Shown here: positions 2,971 to 21,651 of the stretch, piece after piece
Position numbering within the stretch: position 1 is the first letter of the stretch
Layout: the number at the start of each line of letters is the position of its first letter
NCBI RefSeq assembly: GCF_014203605.1
Contig: NZ_JACHJJ010000023.1
Span: 62,001-126,000 of the forward strand
Direction: 5' to 3'
DNA length: 64,000 nt
Source: Thiemannella venezuelensis
Lineage (GTDB): Bacteria > Actinomycetota > Actinomycetes > Streptosporangiales > Streptosporangiaceae
Notes under the pieces: generated by a model
The model's database searches: none
Seen by the model: only the letters and a program-made list of their open reading frames with translations
Told to the model about the DNA's origin: nothing
Made by a program: the position numbers and the translations under genes

Positions 2971-3597
2971 TCAGGGAGGGTCGCCGGGAAGGCCGAGGGA
3001 GCGGTGGACGAGCTGGTGGAGGTGGGCGCGGAAGCGGCGCAGGGCCCGGGGGTCGCCGGGGCCGCGGCGGTCTCCGGCCTCGTCGAGCACGCCGCCCCTG
3101 GTGAAGCCGTGGGTGCACCAGATCACCGACCAGATCAGGTACTCCACGTCGGCTCCGCCCGGCCGGGCCAGGGACCCGGCCGCGGTGGAGACGAGGCCGA
3201 CCAGCGGCTGGACGTACCGCCGCTCCAGCTCGGTGACGTCGGCGGCGTCGGAGAGCCAGCGGTACATCCAGAGCGCGGGGATCTCCGGGTTCTCGGCGCA
3301 GAAGTCGACGTAGACGTCGACCAGCCGGTGCACGGCGGCGGCCGCGTCCCGCTCCGGTGCGGCCGCCAGCTCCTTGACCGCCGCCTCCACCGCGCCCAGC
3401 TCGGCCCGGTGGGCGCGCTCCATGACCGCGAGGTAGAGATCGCGTTTGCCGCCGACGTGGTAGTTGACGGTGGCGATGTTCAGCCCCGCGGCCTCCGCGA
3501 TCTGACGGGTGGAGGTGCCGTCGTAGCCGAGGGCGGCGAACAGCCTGGTCGCGACCCGCAGGATCATCTCCGGCCGGTCGCCTTCGGTGGAGGCCAT
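2971..3597 (-). CDS. TetR/AcrR family transcriptional regulator
   Basis: 208 residues with an N-terminal helix-turn-helix (about residues 10-58: ATRLFAALGYDGTSTRQIAE, then NIATVNYHVGGKRDLY) and a larger ligand-binding part. The start is the ATG at 3597; the upstream frame stays open but has no better start. It lies upstream of the S1P-lyase-like gene on the same strand and is the natural candidate regulator for it. Two palindromes just upstream (3630-3659) are likely binding sites. The inducer is unknown. Confidence 0.85.
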   Translation of the reverse strand: MASTEGDRPEMILRVATRLFAALGYDGTSTRQIAEAAGLNIATVNYHVGGKRDLYLAVMERAHRAELGAVEAAVKELAAAPERDAAAAVHRLVDVYVDFCAENPEIPALWMYRWLSDAADVTELERRYVQPLVGLVSTAAGSLARPGGADVEYLIWSVIWCTHGFTRGGVLDEAGDRRGPGDPRALRRFRAHLHQLVHRSLGLPGDPP

Positions 3598-3629
3598 ACC
3601 TGAGACGGTATGCCCGCCCCCTTTATCCG

Positions 3630-3659
3630 TCAATCGATTGATTGAGAAAGACGATCGTC
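3630..3659. promoter_or_regulatory. Two palindromes upstream of the TetR gene (candidate operator)
   Basis: TCAATCGATTGA (3630-3641) is a perfect 12-bp palindrome and GACGATCGTC (3650-3659) a perfect 10-bp palindrome, with centres 19 bp apart. They lie 33-62 bp upstream of the TetR start in a short AT-richer patch, as expected for an autoregulatory operator. Binding is inferred, not shown. Confidence 0.5.
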
Positions 3660-20197: not shown

Positions 20198-20932
20198 ATG
20201 GCGACCAAGTTGAACCAGATCCTCGCCGTGGAGAAGGGCGTCAAGTCCGACGTCCAGCGCAAGGTGACCGACGCGTACCACACGATCCAGAAGAACGCCC
20301 TCCTGCTGGGGCTGTCGCGGACCTACCAGCCGATCGACGACGAGGGGGAGCACCTCCCCCCGGAGTCGACGCGGGTGCAGGTCCAGGCGGAGGATCTGCT
20401 CAGGCAGGTGGGCGCCGCGCTGACCCGGCTGTTCGACGTGACCGCGACCAAGGACTGGGCCAACTGCGCCGCGCATGCCGACGTGAAGGTCGACGGCGCC
20501 GTCCTGCTGGAGCGGGTGCCGGTCACCTACCTGCTCTTCCTGGAGAAGCAGCTGGTCGACCTGCACACCTTCGTCTCCAAGCTGCCGGTGCTGGACGCGG
20601 CCGAGACCTGGACGCTGGACCCCTCCACCGACTGCTGGCGGACCGAGCCGGTCAAGACGACCCGGACCAAGAAGGTGCCGCGCAACCACGTCAAGGCCGA
20701 GGCCACCGACAAGCACCCGGCCCAGGTCGAGGTCTACCACGAGGATGTCGTCGTCGGCTTCTGGACCAGGGTCGCCTTCTCCGGCGCCATGCCCCGCAAG
20801 CGGGTCAACGAGCTGCTGGAGCGGGTCACCAAGCTCCAGGACGCCGTGAAGTTCGCCCGCGAGGAGGCCAACGGCGCCGAGGTCGCCGACCAGCGGATCG
20901 GGGACAGGATCTTCGACTACCTCCTGAGGTAG
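20198..20932 (+). CDS. Hypothetical protein, mostly helical
   Basis: 244 residues, no signal peptide or membrane segment. The sequence looks like a real protein (balanced composition, good GC3). It is rich in charged helical stretches (KVTDAYHTIQKNALLLGLSRTYQP, then KRVNELLERVTKLQDAVKFAREEAN at the C-terminus, a likely coiled coil) with a central KTTRTKKVPRNHVKAEATDKH segment. I do not recognise a named domain. It lies 53 bp after the kinase and just before the RNA-like tract. Confidence 0.75.
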   Translation: MATKLNQILAVEKGVKSDVQRKVTDAYHTIQKNALLLGLSRTYQPIDDEGEHLPPESTRVQVQAEDLLRQVGAALTRLFDVTATKDWANCAAHADVKVDGAVLLERVPVTYLLFLEKQLVDLHTFVSKLPVLDAAETWTLDPSTDCWRTEPVKTTRTKKVPRNHVKAEATDKHPAQVEVYHEDVVVGFWTRVAFSGAMPRKRVNELLERVTKLQDAVKFAREEANGAEVADQRIGDRIFDYLLR

Positions 20933-20944
20933 TCTTCACAGACT

Positions 20945-20977
20945 CCCCGTGGGAGCGCGGGGACGCGCGAAAGCGCG
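20945..20977 (+). ncRNA. Two RNA hairpins, one with a GAAA tetraloop
   Basis: CCCCG (20945)/CGGGG (20958-20962) forms a 5-bp hairpin. Directly after it CGCGC-GAAA-GCGCG (20964-20977) forms a 5-bp stem closed by a GNRA tetraloop. They follow the hypothetical gene by 12 bp and come just before the permuted tRNA candidate. They may be its terminator or part of a structured precursor RNA. Confidence 0.5.
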
Positions 20978-21000
20978 AAAGCTGAAACTGAACGTCAGAC

Positions 21001-21082
21001 TGACACGCGGTGCATGTGGGGGTTCGAGTCCCTCTCCCGGCACTTTCACGCCGGGATGGCCCAACAGGTAGAGGCGGCCGCT
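21001..21082 (+). tRNA. Candidate circularly permuted tRNA, Val(GAC)-like
   Basis: The 3' half comes first: 21001-21042 holds anticodon-loop end TGACAC, stem GCGGT, a 6-nt variable loop, T-stem and T-loop GTTCGAGTC, acceptor strand TCCCGGC and A73. After a 7-nt spacer (CTTTCAC) the 5' half follows: 21050-21082 holds acceptor GCCGGGA, T8, a 3-bp D stem with AACAGGTAGA loop, and anticodon strand GCCGC plus T32. Joined, they form a 75-nt cloverleaf with all conserved bases (T8, A14, A15-T48, G18, G19, A21, T33, T54, T55, C56, A58, C61) and loop TTGACAC, anticodon GAC. No CCA is encoded. GCTGAA...CTG (20981-20990) and its near-complement (21102-21111) pair around the unit. Expression not shown. 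Confidence 0.6.
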
Positions 21083-21150
21083 CACGCTCAGACTCTCGCT
21101 CCAGGTTCAGCATTCGCCGCCGTGCGCCGGATCGACCGAGGGCAGGCAGA

Positions 21151-21222
21151 GATCGTCGGGTGCGGGTTCGAGTCCCGCTGGGCGCTCCACGTGCGTCCGT
21201 AGCTTAAAGGCAGAGCACGACA
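21151..21222 (+). tRNA. Second candidate permuted tRNA, glycine-like acceptor end
   Basis: Again 3' half first: T-stem/loop GCGGGTTCGAGTCCCGC (21162-21178), acceptor strand TGGGCGC, T73 and an encoded CCA (21187-21189). After 3 nt the 5' half follows: acceptor GCGTCCG (21193-21199), T8, 4-bp D stem GCTT/GAGC with loop AAAGGCA, then CGAC, which pairs with GTCG at 21155-21158. G1-C72, C2-G71, G3-C70 and U73 are glycine-type identity features. The anticodon loop cannot be assembled cleanly (an A-C mismatch or a 3-nt variable loop results), so the unit may be degenerate or use other ends. GCGCCGG (21124) and CCGGCGC (21253) could bracket it. Confidence 0.45.
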
Positions 21223-21279
21223 TCGTCAGGATGACCGGTCCTCTTAAACGTGCCGGCGCCGTCACATGGCGGCACACCA

Positions 21280-21312
21280 GGCCCCCGGGGAATGGATACT
21301 TCCCCGGGGGCC
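21280..21312 (-). terminator. Strong hairpin terminator downstream of hup
   Basis: GGCCCCCGGGGAA (21280-21292) pairs perfectly with its complement (21300-21312) around a 7-base loop: 13 bp, no U-run. It lies 51 bp past the HU stop. The usual actinobacterial hairpin terminator; it could also stop transcription from the tRNA-like tract. Confidence 0.75.
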
Positions 21313-21363
21313 GCCGCTCTCGCACGGCCCGGCGCCGTCGCCGCGCACGGCAGGGCAGGCGGG

Positions 21364-21651
21364 TCAGTCCTTCTTGCGCTGGCGGATCAGCCCCATGAAG
21401 CCCGGGCTCGGCTTGAACTTCGCGGTCCAGGTCTCGGCGATCTCCAGGGGCTCGCCGGTCTGCGGGTTGCGCCCGGCGCGGGCGGGCTTGTGCACGATCT
21501 CGAAGGAGCCGAAACCGGGGATGGCGACCTTGTCCTCGCTCGCGACGGCGTGCTGGATGGCGTCCAGGATCGCGTCCAGCGCCGCGGCGGTCTGCCGCCG
21601 GGTGAGGCCCGCCTCCGCTGCGGCCTTCTCGATCAGCTCGCGCTTGTTCAT
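21364..21651 (-). CDS. hup: HU family DNA-binding protein
   Basis: 95 residues, a normal-length HU. MNKRELIEKAAAEAGLTRRQTAAALDAILDAI forms the dimerising helices and the beta-arm region carries GFGSFEIVHKPARAGRNPQTGEPLEI with the conserved RNPQTG signature. The short basic tail RQRKKD is not the long Lys/Ala tail of mycobacterial/Streptomyces HupS. A nucleoid protein that bends DNA as a dimer. It is transcribed toward the tRNA-like tract with a strong terminator between. Confidence 0.93.
   Translation of the reverse strand: MNKRELIEKAAAEAGLTRRQTAAALDAILDAIQHAVASEDKVAIPGFGSFEIVHKPARAGRNPQTGEPLEIAETWTAKFKPSPGFMGLIRQRKKD

What the first reader, a model, noticed from the sequence alone, without database searches (positions are those of the whole stretch)
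20981..21259. Two tandem tRNA candidates with circularly permuted gene order
Seen: twice in a row a T-arm plus 3' acceptor strand comes before, not after, the complementary 5' acceptor strand plus D-arm. In unit 1 the pairing TCCCGGC (21035)/GCCGGGA (21050) is 7 of 7, the anticodon strands GCGGT/GCCGC pair across the permutation, and joining the outer ends gives the loop TTGACAC, which differs only at the last base from E. coli tRNA-Val(GAC). All conserved tertiary bases are present, including A15-T48. Unit 2 has TGGGCGC-T-CCA before GCGTCCG and glycine-type acceptor identity, but its anticodon loop is unclear. Known: permuted tRNA genes exist in some red and green algae and an archaeon, and permuted two-piece tmRNA exists in bacteria; I know of no established bacterial permuted tRNA class. 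Inference: the transcript would need circularisation, or the halves work as a two-piece tRNA.
Basis: partly seen in the sequence, partly recalled or inferred. Interest (0 to 1): 0.92.

Follow-up and report, generated by a model that had tools for sequence, protein, structure and literature searches.

The report
Paired tRNA-mimic RNAs beside DUF7873 gene
The two 'scrambled tRNA genes' are most likely not tRNA genes but a pair of small RNAs that imitate tRNA (bacterial Y RNAs); in related soil bacteria and in a range of phages they sit behind one protein gene of unknown function, which suggests a Y-RNA machine that does not depend on the usual partner protein Ro60.

Summary
At 20981-21258 lie two tandem RNAs in which T-arm and 3' acceptor strand precede 5' acceptor strand and D-arm, with the acceptor stem closed by a loop: the YrlA (Y RNA-like) architecture. 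Best Rfam hit RF02553, 30.6 and 16.2 bits, below its cut-off of 69. Covariation in 42 sequences supports unit 2 as one contiguous RNA with a long basal rod where an anticodon loop would be (24 of 36 pairs compensated). CCA is not conserved; ordinary tRNA-Val(GAC) and tRNA-Gly genes exist. New part: the pair lies behind a DUF7873 gene. The best 80 of 452 named relatives all carry one or both RNAs there; unit-2 RNA and DUF7873 mark the same 42 of 150 genomes; 13 of 14 phage loci and 25 of 36 viral loci keep the link. No convincing TROVE/Ro60 gene was found in 13 of those phages and 12 of the 42 genomes, and the RNAs lack the motif of Ro60-linked Y RNAs. Probably a Ro60-independent Y RNP; DUF7873 binding is inferred.

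The parts
20198..20932 (+). DUF7873 protein gene (244 aa), the conserved partner of the RNA pair
   Evidence: PF25283 E 4e-118, 393.8 bits against a cut-off of 27; RNAs behind it in 80 of 80 named loci
20981..21111 (+). Y RNA unit 1 (YrlA-like tRNA mimic), predicted basal stem included
   Evidence: RF02553 16.2 bits, E 1.5, at 20996-21098; single-sequence fold with basal stem; RNAalifold on 42 sequences, 10 of 25 pairs compensated, all in T-arm and acceptor; basal strands nearly invariant
21018..21034 (+). unit 1 T-arm
21035..21056 (+). unit 1 acceptor-like stem, 7 bp, closed by an 8-nt loop (21042-21049)
   Evidence: 7/7 pairs; covaries; cap length 4-36 nt in 61 bacterial relatives
21057..21081 (+). 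unit 1 D-arm and start of the 3' basal strand
21125..21258 (+). Y RNA unit 2 (YrlA-like tRNA mimic), basal stem included
   Evidence: RF02553 30.6 bits, E 9.8e-5, at 21137-21247; covariation in 24 of 36 pairs; model R1 110.6 bits (this sequence is in the model's training set)
21125..21158 (+). unit 2 basal stem, 5' strand (21125-21130, 21138-21146, 21154-21158)
   Evidence: partners 21253-21258, 21235-21243, 21218-21222; 3, 7 and 3 pairs compensated in relatives
21162..21178 (+). unit 2 T-arm
21179..21199 (+). unit 2 acceptor-like stem, 7 bp, closed by a 7-nt loop (21186-21192)
   Evidence: 6 of 7 pairs compensated in relatives
21200..21216 (+). unit 2 D-arm
   Evidence: helix 6
21218..21258 (+). 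unit 2 basal stem, 3' strand, with the conserved CTTAAACG motif
   Evidence: motif within 900 nt downstream in 79 of 80 bacterial loci, 2 of 80 on the reverse strand
21277..21314 (.). strong inverted repeat between unit 2 and convergent hup, possible shared terminator without a T-run
   Evidence: read and the alignment; the consensus scan found no terminator-like site

Best explanation
The region encodes two distinct YrlA-like Y RNAs in tandem behind the gene of DUF7873. Each RNA folds as a tRNA mimic: T-arm, acceptor-like stem capped by a short loop, D-arm, and, in place of the anticodon arm, a long basal stem formed by its own 5' and 3' ends. The arrangement DUF7873-Y1-Y2 is kept together in many Actinomycetota and in tailed phages. 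Most likely DUF7873, or a complex it helps to build, binds conserved internal-loop motifs in the basal stems and displays the tRNA-like heads to tRNA-handling machinery, as Ro60 does for other Y RNAs but without needing Ro60. Shown here: sequence, unit-2 covariation, linkage, absence of the Ro60-linked motif, no TROVE found in many carriers. Inferred: transcription, DUF7873 binding, and the target of the tRNA-like heads.
For: YrlA is the only Rfam family that covers unit 1 and the top one for unit 2 at E up to 10 (unit 1 alone is not significant), and it hits 17 of 18 further DUF7873 loci tested, best E per locus 1.5e-5 to 1.7, all below gathering. Unit-2 covariation: 97.7% of 1494 cells paired, 248 compensated cells against 75.6 in shuffles, 0 of 500 shuffles as high; partner-slid versions 37.5-48.4% paired. 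Linkage: 80 of 80 named bacterial loci have at least one unit within 700 nt downstream, 61 have both; all 42 genomes counted with a DUF7873 gene have a unit-2 RNA of 56 bits or more on the same contig behind it, the best of the other 108 is 40.5 bits, beside its TROVE gene; 13 of 14 phage loci, with 18 seven-pair units behind the gene and none elsewhere on either strand in 87 kb; 25 of 36 viral loci. Motif separation: GGTGC..AGG..TACTTC in 29 of 36 TROVE-linked units, 0 of 141 DUF7873-linked units by the same expression. TROVE: clear in one of 14 phages; in 12 of 42 genomes none found even with the sensitive profile.
Against: No RNA or binding data. Both units score below the RF02553 gathering score. 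In the own order DUF7873 and TROVE co-occur more than chance (28 of 42 against 38 of 108 by Pfam; odds ratio 3.7, p 0.0009), so Ro60 may still take part where present. The unit-1 basal stem is nearly invariant and gives no covariation support. 11 of 36 viral loci and 1 of 14 phage loci show no unit by the descriptor; the loose pass also gave 8 six-pair hits in the phage loci, all outside the 700 nt behind the gene. In 5 of the 13 phages a small hypothetical CDS is annotated over the unit. The shared basal motifs are seen in only 23 and 19 of 49 viral loci, against 6 and 5 on the reverse strand. The DUF7873 model (pLDDT 90.3, pTM 0.62) has no convincing fold match that would show RNA binding.
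Confidence: 0.78

Rival explanations
1. Circularly permuted tRNA genes: the transcript is circularised or its halves are rejoined, the cap loop is cut out, and tRNA-Val(GAC)- and tRNA-Gly-like tRNAs result.
For: T-arm/acceptor/D-arm order and 7/7 acceptor pairs. A CCA follows the acceptor strand in 20 of 47 distinct viral units, 17 of 32 first units. The genome has two RtcB ligase genes.
Against: In unit 2 helices of 9 and 6 covarying pairs extend beyond the anticodon-stem position, leaving no anticodon loop. CCA in only 23 of 122 bacterial units. For unit 1 a 5-bp anticodon-like stem was found in 6 of the 9 loci printed, and the bases beside it differ among them. Ordinary tRNA-Val(GAC) and tRNA-Gly(GCC, TCC, CCC) genes are present.
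Confidence: 0.03
2. Ro60-dependent Y RNAs: the pair is bound by the host's own Ro60 (TROVE protein on another contig), and DUF7873 is an accessory or maturation factor of that RNP.
For: The genome encodes TROVE (P0002) with YrlA-like RNAs upstream. DUF7873 and TROVE co-occur 28 of 42 against 38 of 108.
Against: DUF7873-linked units lack the motif of TROVE-linked Y RNAs (0 of 141, against 29 of 36). No TROVE gene was found in 12 of 42 carrier genomes; the 14 carrier phages gave one clear TROVE gene and one weak 41-residue hit.
Confidence: 0.15
3. tRNA debris or a mobile-element attachment site made of tRNA fragments.
For: T-arm and D-arm sequences look tRNA-derived; ARAGORN calls no tRNA.
Against: Compensatory changes throughout unit 2, conservation in 80 of 80 loci, two distinct conserved units in fixed order.
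Confidence: 0.01
4. The RNAs are tRNA decoys of a phage-derived counter-defence or defence module (titrating tRNA nucleases or modifying enzymes); DUF7873 stabilises them.
For: In several phages the cassette lies among tRNA genes; DUF7873 occurs in 73 phage records named for nine genera.
Against: No anticodon loop for anticodon nucleases to cut; no PADLOC hit for DUF7873; carried by 42 of 150 bacterial genomes of the order, whose phage context was not examined.
Confidence: 0.2

Closest known systems
YrlA bacterial Y RNA (Rfam RF02553; Salmonella YrlA, PDB 6CU1)
   Same: Large stem from 5' and 3' ends plus a tRNA-like domain with D, T and acceptor arms, 90-150 nt, permuted relative to tRNA (PMC8394870 and PMC11472068, passages)
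   Different: Scores below the Rfam cut-off; linked to DUF7873 instead of the rsr-rtcBA operon described for Salmonella (PMC7790460, passages); lacks the motif of TROVE-linked Y RNAs of the same order; two distinct units in fixed order
TROVE-linked YrlA-like RNAs of the same genome (L001, L032)
   Same: Same capped-acceptor tRNA-mimic head; tandem copies beside a protein gene
   Different: They carry GGTGCG..AGG..TACTTC in the basal strand and lie upstream of TROVE
Phage Y RNA proposals (Listeria phage CKA15, PMC12282133; phage YrlA and a Ro60-like protein, PMC7765460; TROVE in some jumbo phages, PMC7824862; passages)
   Same: Phage-encoded Y RNA or tRNA-like partner of an RNP
   Different: There the protein partner is an Rsr/TROVE homologue; here it is DUF7873, and one of 14 phages tested has a clear TROVE gene
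Permuted tRNA genes of algae and an archaeon (PMC3978253, PMC3218864; search listing only)
   Same: T-arm and 3' acceptor precede 5' acceptor and D-arm (recalled)
   Different: No anticodon loop at the joined ends, CCA not conserved, ends form a basal stem
Two-piece (permuted) tmRNA
   Same: Permuted tRNA-like domain in bacteria (recalled)
   Different: No tmRNA model matches the locus at E up to 10; a tag reading frame was not sought

Membership tests
YrlA (Rfam RF02553) | score at or above the Rfam gathering score (69 bits) | tested here: not met
   unit 2 30.6 bits, unit 1 16.2 bits; 18 relatives at most 40.8, 11 phage loci at most 37.9
YrlA-type architecture (works like) | tRNA-like domain in the order T-arm, acceptor closed by a loop, D-arm | tested here: met
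YrlA-type architecture (works like) | large basal stem formed by the RNA's own 5' and 3' ends | tested here: met
   unit 2: helices of 6, 9 and 5 pairs covary. Unit 1: complementary in the fold but nearly invariant, so not shown by covariation
Ro60/Rsr-bound Y RNA | basal-strand motif shared by TROVE-linked Y RNAs of the order | tested here: not met
   0 of 141 DUF7873-linked units, 29 of 36 TROVE-linked units
Ro60/Rsr-bound Y RNA | physical binding to Ro60 | not testable with these tools
   needs co-purification or a gel shift
Permuted tRNA gene | 3' half precedes 5' half with intact T, acceptor and D arms | tested here: met
Permuted tRNA gene | outer ends join to an anticodon arm with a loop | tested here: not met
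   unit 2: the anticodon-stem position is followed by 9 + 6 further covarying pairs; unit 1: no common join among the loci printed
Permuted tRNA gene | CCA end encoded or added after processing | tested here: inconclusive
   NCCA in 15 of 61 and 8 of 61 bacterial units, 20 of 47 viral units; CCA could be added after processing
Permuted tRNA gene | bulge-helix-bulge splice motif | not tested
   not examined
tmRNA, one- or two-piece | match to a tmRNA model | tested here: not met
   no tmRNA or permuted tmRNA row over 20900-21400 at E up to 10
DUF7873 (PF25283) | score over the Pfam cut-off | tested here: met
   393.8 bits against 27
TROVE/Ro60 (for the DUF7873 protein) | TROVE sequence profile | tested here: not met
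   DUF7873 is the only Pfam hit at E 0.001
TROVE/Ro60 (for the DUF7873 protein) | TROVE fold | tested here: inconclusive
   no Foldseek match at E 0.001 or better; VIA best Z 8.1 to 3kdq, 148 aligned, rmsd 8.5, unknown function

The most novel reading that the evidence does not exclude
DUF7873 is a dedicated Y-RNA-binding protein that defines a second, Ro60-independent class of bacterial Y RNPs, built on a pair of different tRNA-mimic RNAs and spread across Actinomycetota and tailed phages of actinobacterial, cyanobacterial, rhizobial, Vibrio and Klebsiella hosts, where it acts on the tRNA economy of the infected cell.
Probability: 0.5. Interest if true: 0.82.

Novelty: new variant of a known kind. 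Interest (0 to 1): 0.66.

Why it matters
In the papers I could read, bacterial Y RNAs come with one dedicated protein, Ro60/Rsr. A protein family of unknown function that is locked to a pair of tRNA mimics, also in genomes and phages where no Ro60 gene was found, would give DUF7873 its first testable function, point phage annotators to RNAs that are now left blank or overwritten by small hypothetical genes, and make the open question of what Y RNA tRNA-mimicry is for testable in a small phage or Streptomyces system. It also shows why a standard tRNA finder misses, or miscalls, such genes.

Tried and rejected
Permuted tRNA genes, two-piece tmRNA and tRNA debris were considered and rejected (see rivals). 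The hup neighbour was tested and is not conserved (1 of 80). RtcB was looked for only in the own genome: two genes on other contigs. No promoter-like or terminator-like site was found in 20900-21400 by the consensus scan. Single-sequence folding gave no unusual stability. At E 0.001 DUF7873 has no NCBIfam, PHROG or PADLOC match; a profile found no relative among solved-structure sequences (best E 0.28); fold searches gave no clear match. L001 was first translated on the wrong strand (P0001), then corrected (P0002). The thought that DUF7873 replaces TROVE one for one was dropped: the two co-occur more than chance.

Rows dropped before counts: of 46 genomes with a DUF7873 match four partial or weak ones (G019, G052, G056, G067) were set aside, leaving 42, one of which (G059) has the gene in two pieces; none of the four has a unit-2 RNA of 56 bits or more. 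That the 42 RNA hits lie on the same contig behind the gene was read by eye. Of 73 phage records 14 were fetched, chosen to span genera. Of 36 viral loci two (L170, L197) are the same contig and one (L167) has only 134 nt downstream; all are counted in 25 of 36, L167 is left out of the 49. A1 and A2 hold 42 of the 62 two-unit loci (window plus 61 relatives), A6 33. The sensitive TROVE search was given the 14 carrier genomes that Pfam had scored negative (two proved positive, G128 and G145), not the 108 others. A 41-residue hit in Arthrobacter phage Mimi (E 0.0026) was not counted as TROVE. One search counted hits with all 7 acceptor pairs, or 6 with the stricter D-arm pattern and a shorter loop.

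Full report
What was checked. The finding places two tRNA-like units with the 3' half before the 5' half at 20981-21259. Reading the sequence confirms both at the stated coordinates. ARAGORN calls no tRNA or tmRNA and no Rfam family reaches its gathering score in the window. With permissive thresholds over 20900-21400 the top hit is RF02553 YrlA, 'Y RNA-like', for unit 2 (21137-21247, 30.6 bits, E 9.8e-5), and the same family covers unit 1 (20996-21098, 16.2 bits, E 1.5, not significant alone); the cut-off is 69 bits. A simple descriptor of the arrangement finds just these two units in 64 kb, both strands.

What the architecture is. Passages of two held papers describe YrlA as an RNA with a large stem made by its 5' and 3' ends and a tRNA-like domain with D, T and acceptor arms (PMC8394870), which superposes on tRNA with a circular permutation (PMC11472068, PDB 6CU1). 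That is the order seen here. The primary YrlA papers (Chen 2013 and 2014, Wang 2018) and the reviews of 2018 and 2020 were not read: all but Chen 2013 were asked for and are not held. What I say of them comes from the passages above or is recalled.

Relatives. A pattern scan of the species-genome collection with the neighbouring 244-aa protein gave 452 relatives; the best 80, Streptosporangiaceae and Streptomyces by their titles, were kept. All 80 have at least one permuted unit within 700 nt downstream of the protein gene and 61 have two; 3 other hits occur in 0.97 Mb, one of them at +708. Of the 19 with one hit, a looser pass found a second unit with all 7 acceptor pairs in two, L072 and L105; the other 17 have one unit by these descriptors. 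The cap loop ranges from 4 to 36 nt in unit 1 and 6 to 13 nt in unit 2 of the 61 two-unit loci.

Covariation. On 42 unit-2 sequences (A2) RNAalifold proposes 31 pairs in five helices, 21 with a change on both sides (counted). With the five pairs at the anticodon-stem position added by me, 97.7% of 1494 cells pair, 24 of 36 pairs show a change on both sides, and 248 compensated cells compare with 75.6 in shuffles (0 of 500 as high); sliding partners by 1-3 columns drops pairing to 37.5-48.4%. The structure was partly derived from this alignment, which favours it over the slid versions, and shuffles ignore relatedness; the double changes in all six helices are still hard to explain otherwise. 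The helices beyond the anticodon-stem position (9 and 6 pairs, 7 and 3 compensated) run on as a basal rod, so the outer ends do not form an anticodon loop. For unit 1 (A1) T-arm and acceptor covary (10 of 25 pairs), while the basal strands are almost invariant and neither support nor contradict a stem.

Not a tRNA gene. NCCA follows the acceptor strand in 15 of 61 first and 8 of 61 second bacterial units. For unit 1 a 5-bp anticodon-like stem was found in 6 of 9 loci printed, with different bases beside it. Rfam finds 66 tRNA matches in the genome; ARAGORN on loci covering them reports tRNA-Val(GAC) at three places and tRNA-Gly with GCC, TCC and CCC anticodons.

The protein partner. The gene at 20198-20932 is DUF7873 (PF25283, E 4e-118). 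hup was found in only 1 of 80 loci. In 150 genomes of the order DUF7873 has a match in 46; 42 are full-length or, in G059, full in two pieces. A covariance model of unit 2 (R1) gives hits of 56 bits or more in exactly those 42 genomes, each on the same contig within a few hundred bases behind the gene (read), and in none of the other 108, whose best is 40.5 bits beside a TROVE gene (sets compared). R1 was trained on relatives from the same families, so the scores are not independent, but the match of the two sets is telling. In a sample of the phylum DUF7873 is rare: 7 of 396 genomes, the own one included, and 4 of 72,556 plasmid records.

Ro60 context. The genome has one TROVE protein (P0002, 530 aa, TROVE E 3e-15) on another contig, with YrlA-like RNAs upstream (43.3 bits; sequence). 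Of 30 TROVE loci of the order 27 have a permuted unit in the locus. The strand before the T-arm matches GGTGC..AGG..TACTTC in 29 of 36 such units and, by the same expression, in 0 of 141 DUF7873-linked units. By Pfam, DUF7873 and TROVE co-occur in 28 of 42 genomes against 38 of 108 (p 0.0009). Of the 14 apparently TROVE-less carriers, a profile of the order's own TROVE proteins found TROVE in two, leaving 12 of 42 without; the 108 others were not searched with that profile. So the cassette tends to share genomes with Ro60 but does not need it there.

Phages. tblastn finds DUF7873 in 73 of 50,697 phage records, named for Vibrio, Gordonia, Rhizobium, Klebsiella, Serratia, Arthrobacter, Pseudanabaena, Rhodococcus and Microcoleus, at 31-56% identity in the 60 listed. 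In the 14 fetched the gene is annotated hypothetical. 13 of 14 have one or two units with all seven acceptor pairs within 700 nt behind it, all but the Microcoleus phage L154: 18 such units there and none elsewhere on either strand in 87 kb, besides 8 six-pair hits on the gene's strand outside that place. In 8 of the 13 no CDS is annotated over the unit; in 5 (L152, L157, L158, L160, L161) a small hypothetical CDS is. In several the gene lies among tRNA genes. In IMG/VR, 25 of 36 loci have units within 900 nt downstream, 13 have two, against 2 hits elsewhere on the same strand and 2 on the other. A clear TROVE gene is found in one of the 14 phages, RHph_TM21B; Arthrobacter phage Mimi has a weak 41-residue hit.

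Shared motifs and CCA. The unit-1 motif is found in 77 of 80 bacterial loci (reverse strand 0 of 80) and 23 of 49 viral loci (reverse 6); the unit-2 motif in 79 of 80 (reverse 2) and 19 of 49 (reverse 5).

DUF7873 itself. The alignment of 45 proteins keeps N89, W138, H173, P174, Q176 and R221 among its invariant columns. AlphaFold2 gives a confident local model (pLDDT 90.3) with modest pTM 0.62: long helices and a long beta hairpin whose tip carries the HPAQ stretch. No sequence or fold relative of known function was found. A missing match does not show a new fold.

How it most likely works. By analogy with Ro60-Y RNPs, the basal stem is the protein-binding end and the tRNA-like head the effector. 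The two basal stems have different conserved motifs, so the pair may dock on one DUF7873 assembly or on DUF7873 and a further protein. The heads could be handled by tRNA enzymes: YrlA is reported to be a substrate of DusA and TruB (PMC8394870, passage). The place among phage tRNA genes suggests an effect on tRNA supply or tRNA damage during infection. None of this is shown here.

Novelty. Phage Y RNAs and phage Ro60-like proteins are in print (PMC12282133, PMC7765460, PMC7824862, passages). No paper in the held library mentions DUF7873, and the listings for YrlA, Y RNA with Streptomyces, with phage and Rsr, with Actinobacteria and TROVE, and for permuted tRNA in bacteria or phages (titles and abstract starts seen) show nothing that describes this cassette; most subscription papers are not covered, among them the primary YrlA papers. 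I class it as a new variant of a known kind: YrlA-like RNAs with a new protein partner and no need of Ro60 in many carriers.

Noticed in passing
L149:1075-1603 (Gordonia phage Phendrix, MN096369.1): A tmRNA gene not in the record's feature table (RF00023, 89 bits, cut-off 47) lies among the phage tRNA genes upstream of DUF7873.
   Followed up: no
L156:3507-3590 (Klebsiella phage vB_KpM_Centimanus): A 'tRNA-Stop(tta)' annotated from ARAGORN overlaps the T-arm of the second YrlA-like unit (3564-3648) and is probably a misannotation of it.
   Followed up: partly
L032 / L001 (G000:C25, upstream of TROVE): The genome's TROVE gene is preceded by about five copies of a GGTGCGNAG..TACTTC motif (read by eye), two of them with a full permuted tRNA-like head.
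   Followed up: partly
window 21277-21314: A strong GC-rich inverted repeat between unit 2 and hup has no T-run; it gave a sub-threshold HIV_FS2 hit that I take as spurious.
   Followed up: no
G000:C1:4768-5638: A compact cluster of seven tRNA genes by ARAGORN (L240), two with low Rfam scores (42.2 and 38.2 bits), possibly of mobile-element origin.
   Followed up: no
L161:5263-5442 (Pseudanabaena phage PA-SR01): Sub-threshold permuted tmRNA match (RF04321, 31.9 bits, cut-off 47).
   Followed up: no
L155 (Rhizobium phage RHph_TM21B), record 113273-114586: This phage carries both DUF7873 with its RNA and a TROVE protein about 5 kb further on.
   Followed up: no
L071 at +708 behind DUF7873 (Spongiactinospora sp. 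TRM90649): A possible third permuted unit just beyond the 700-nt limit.
   Followed up: no
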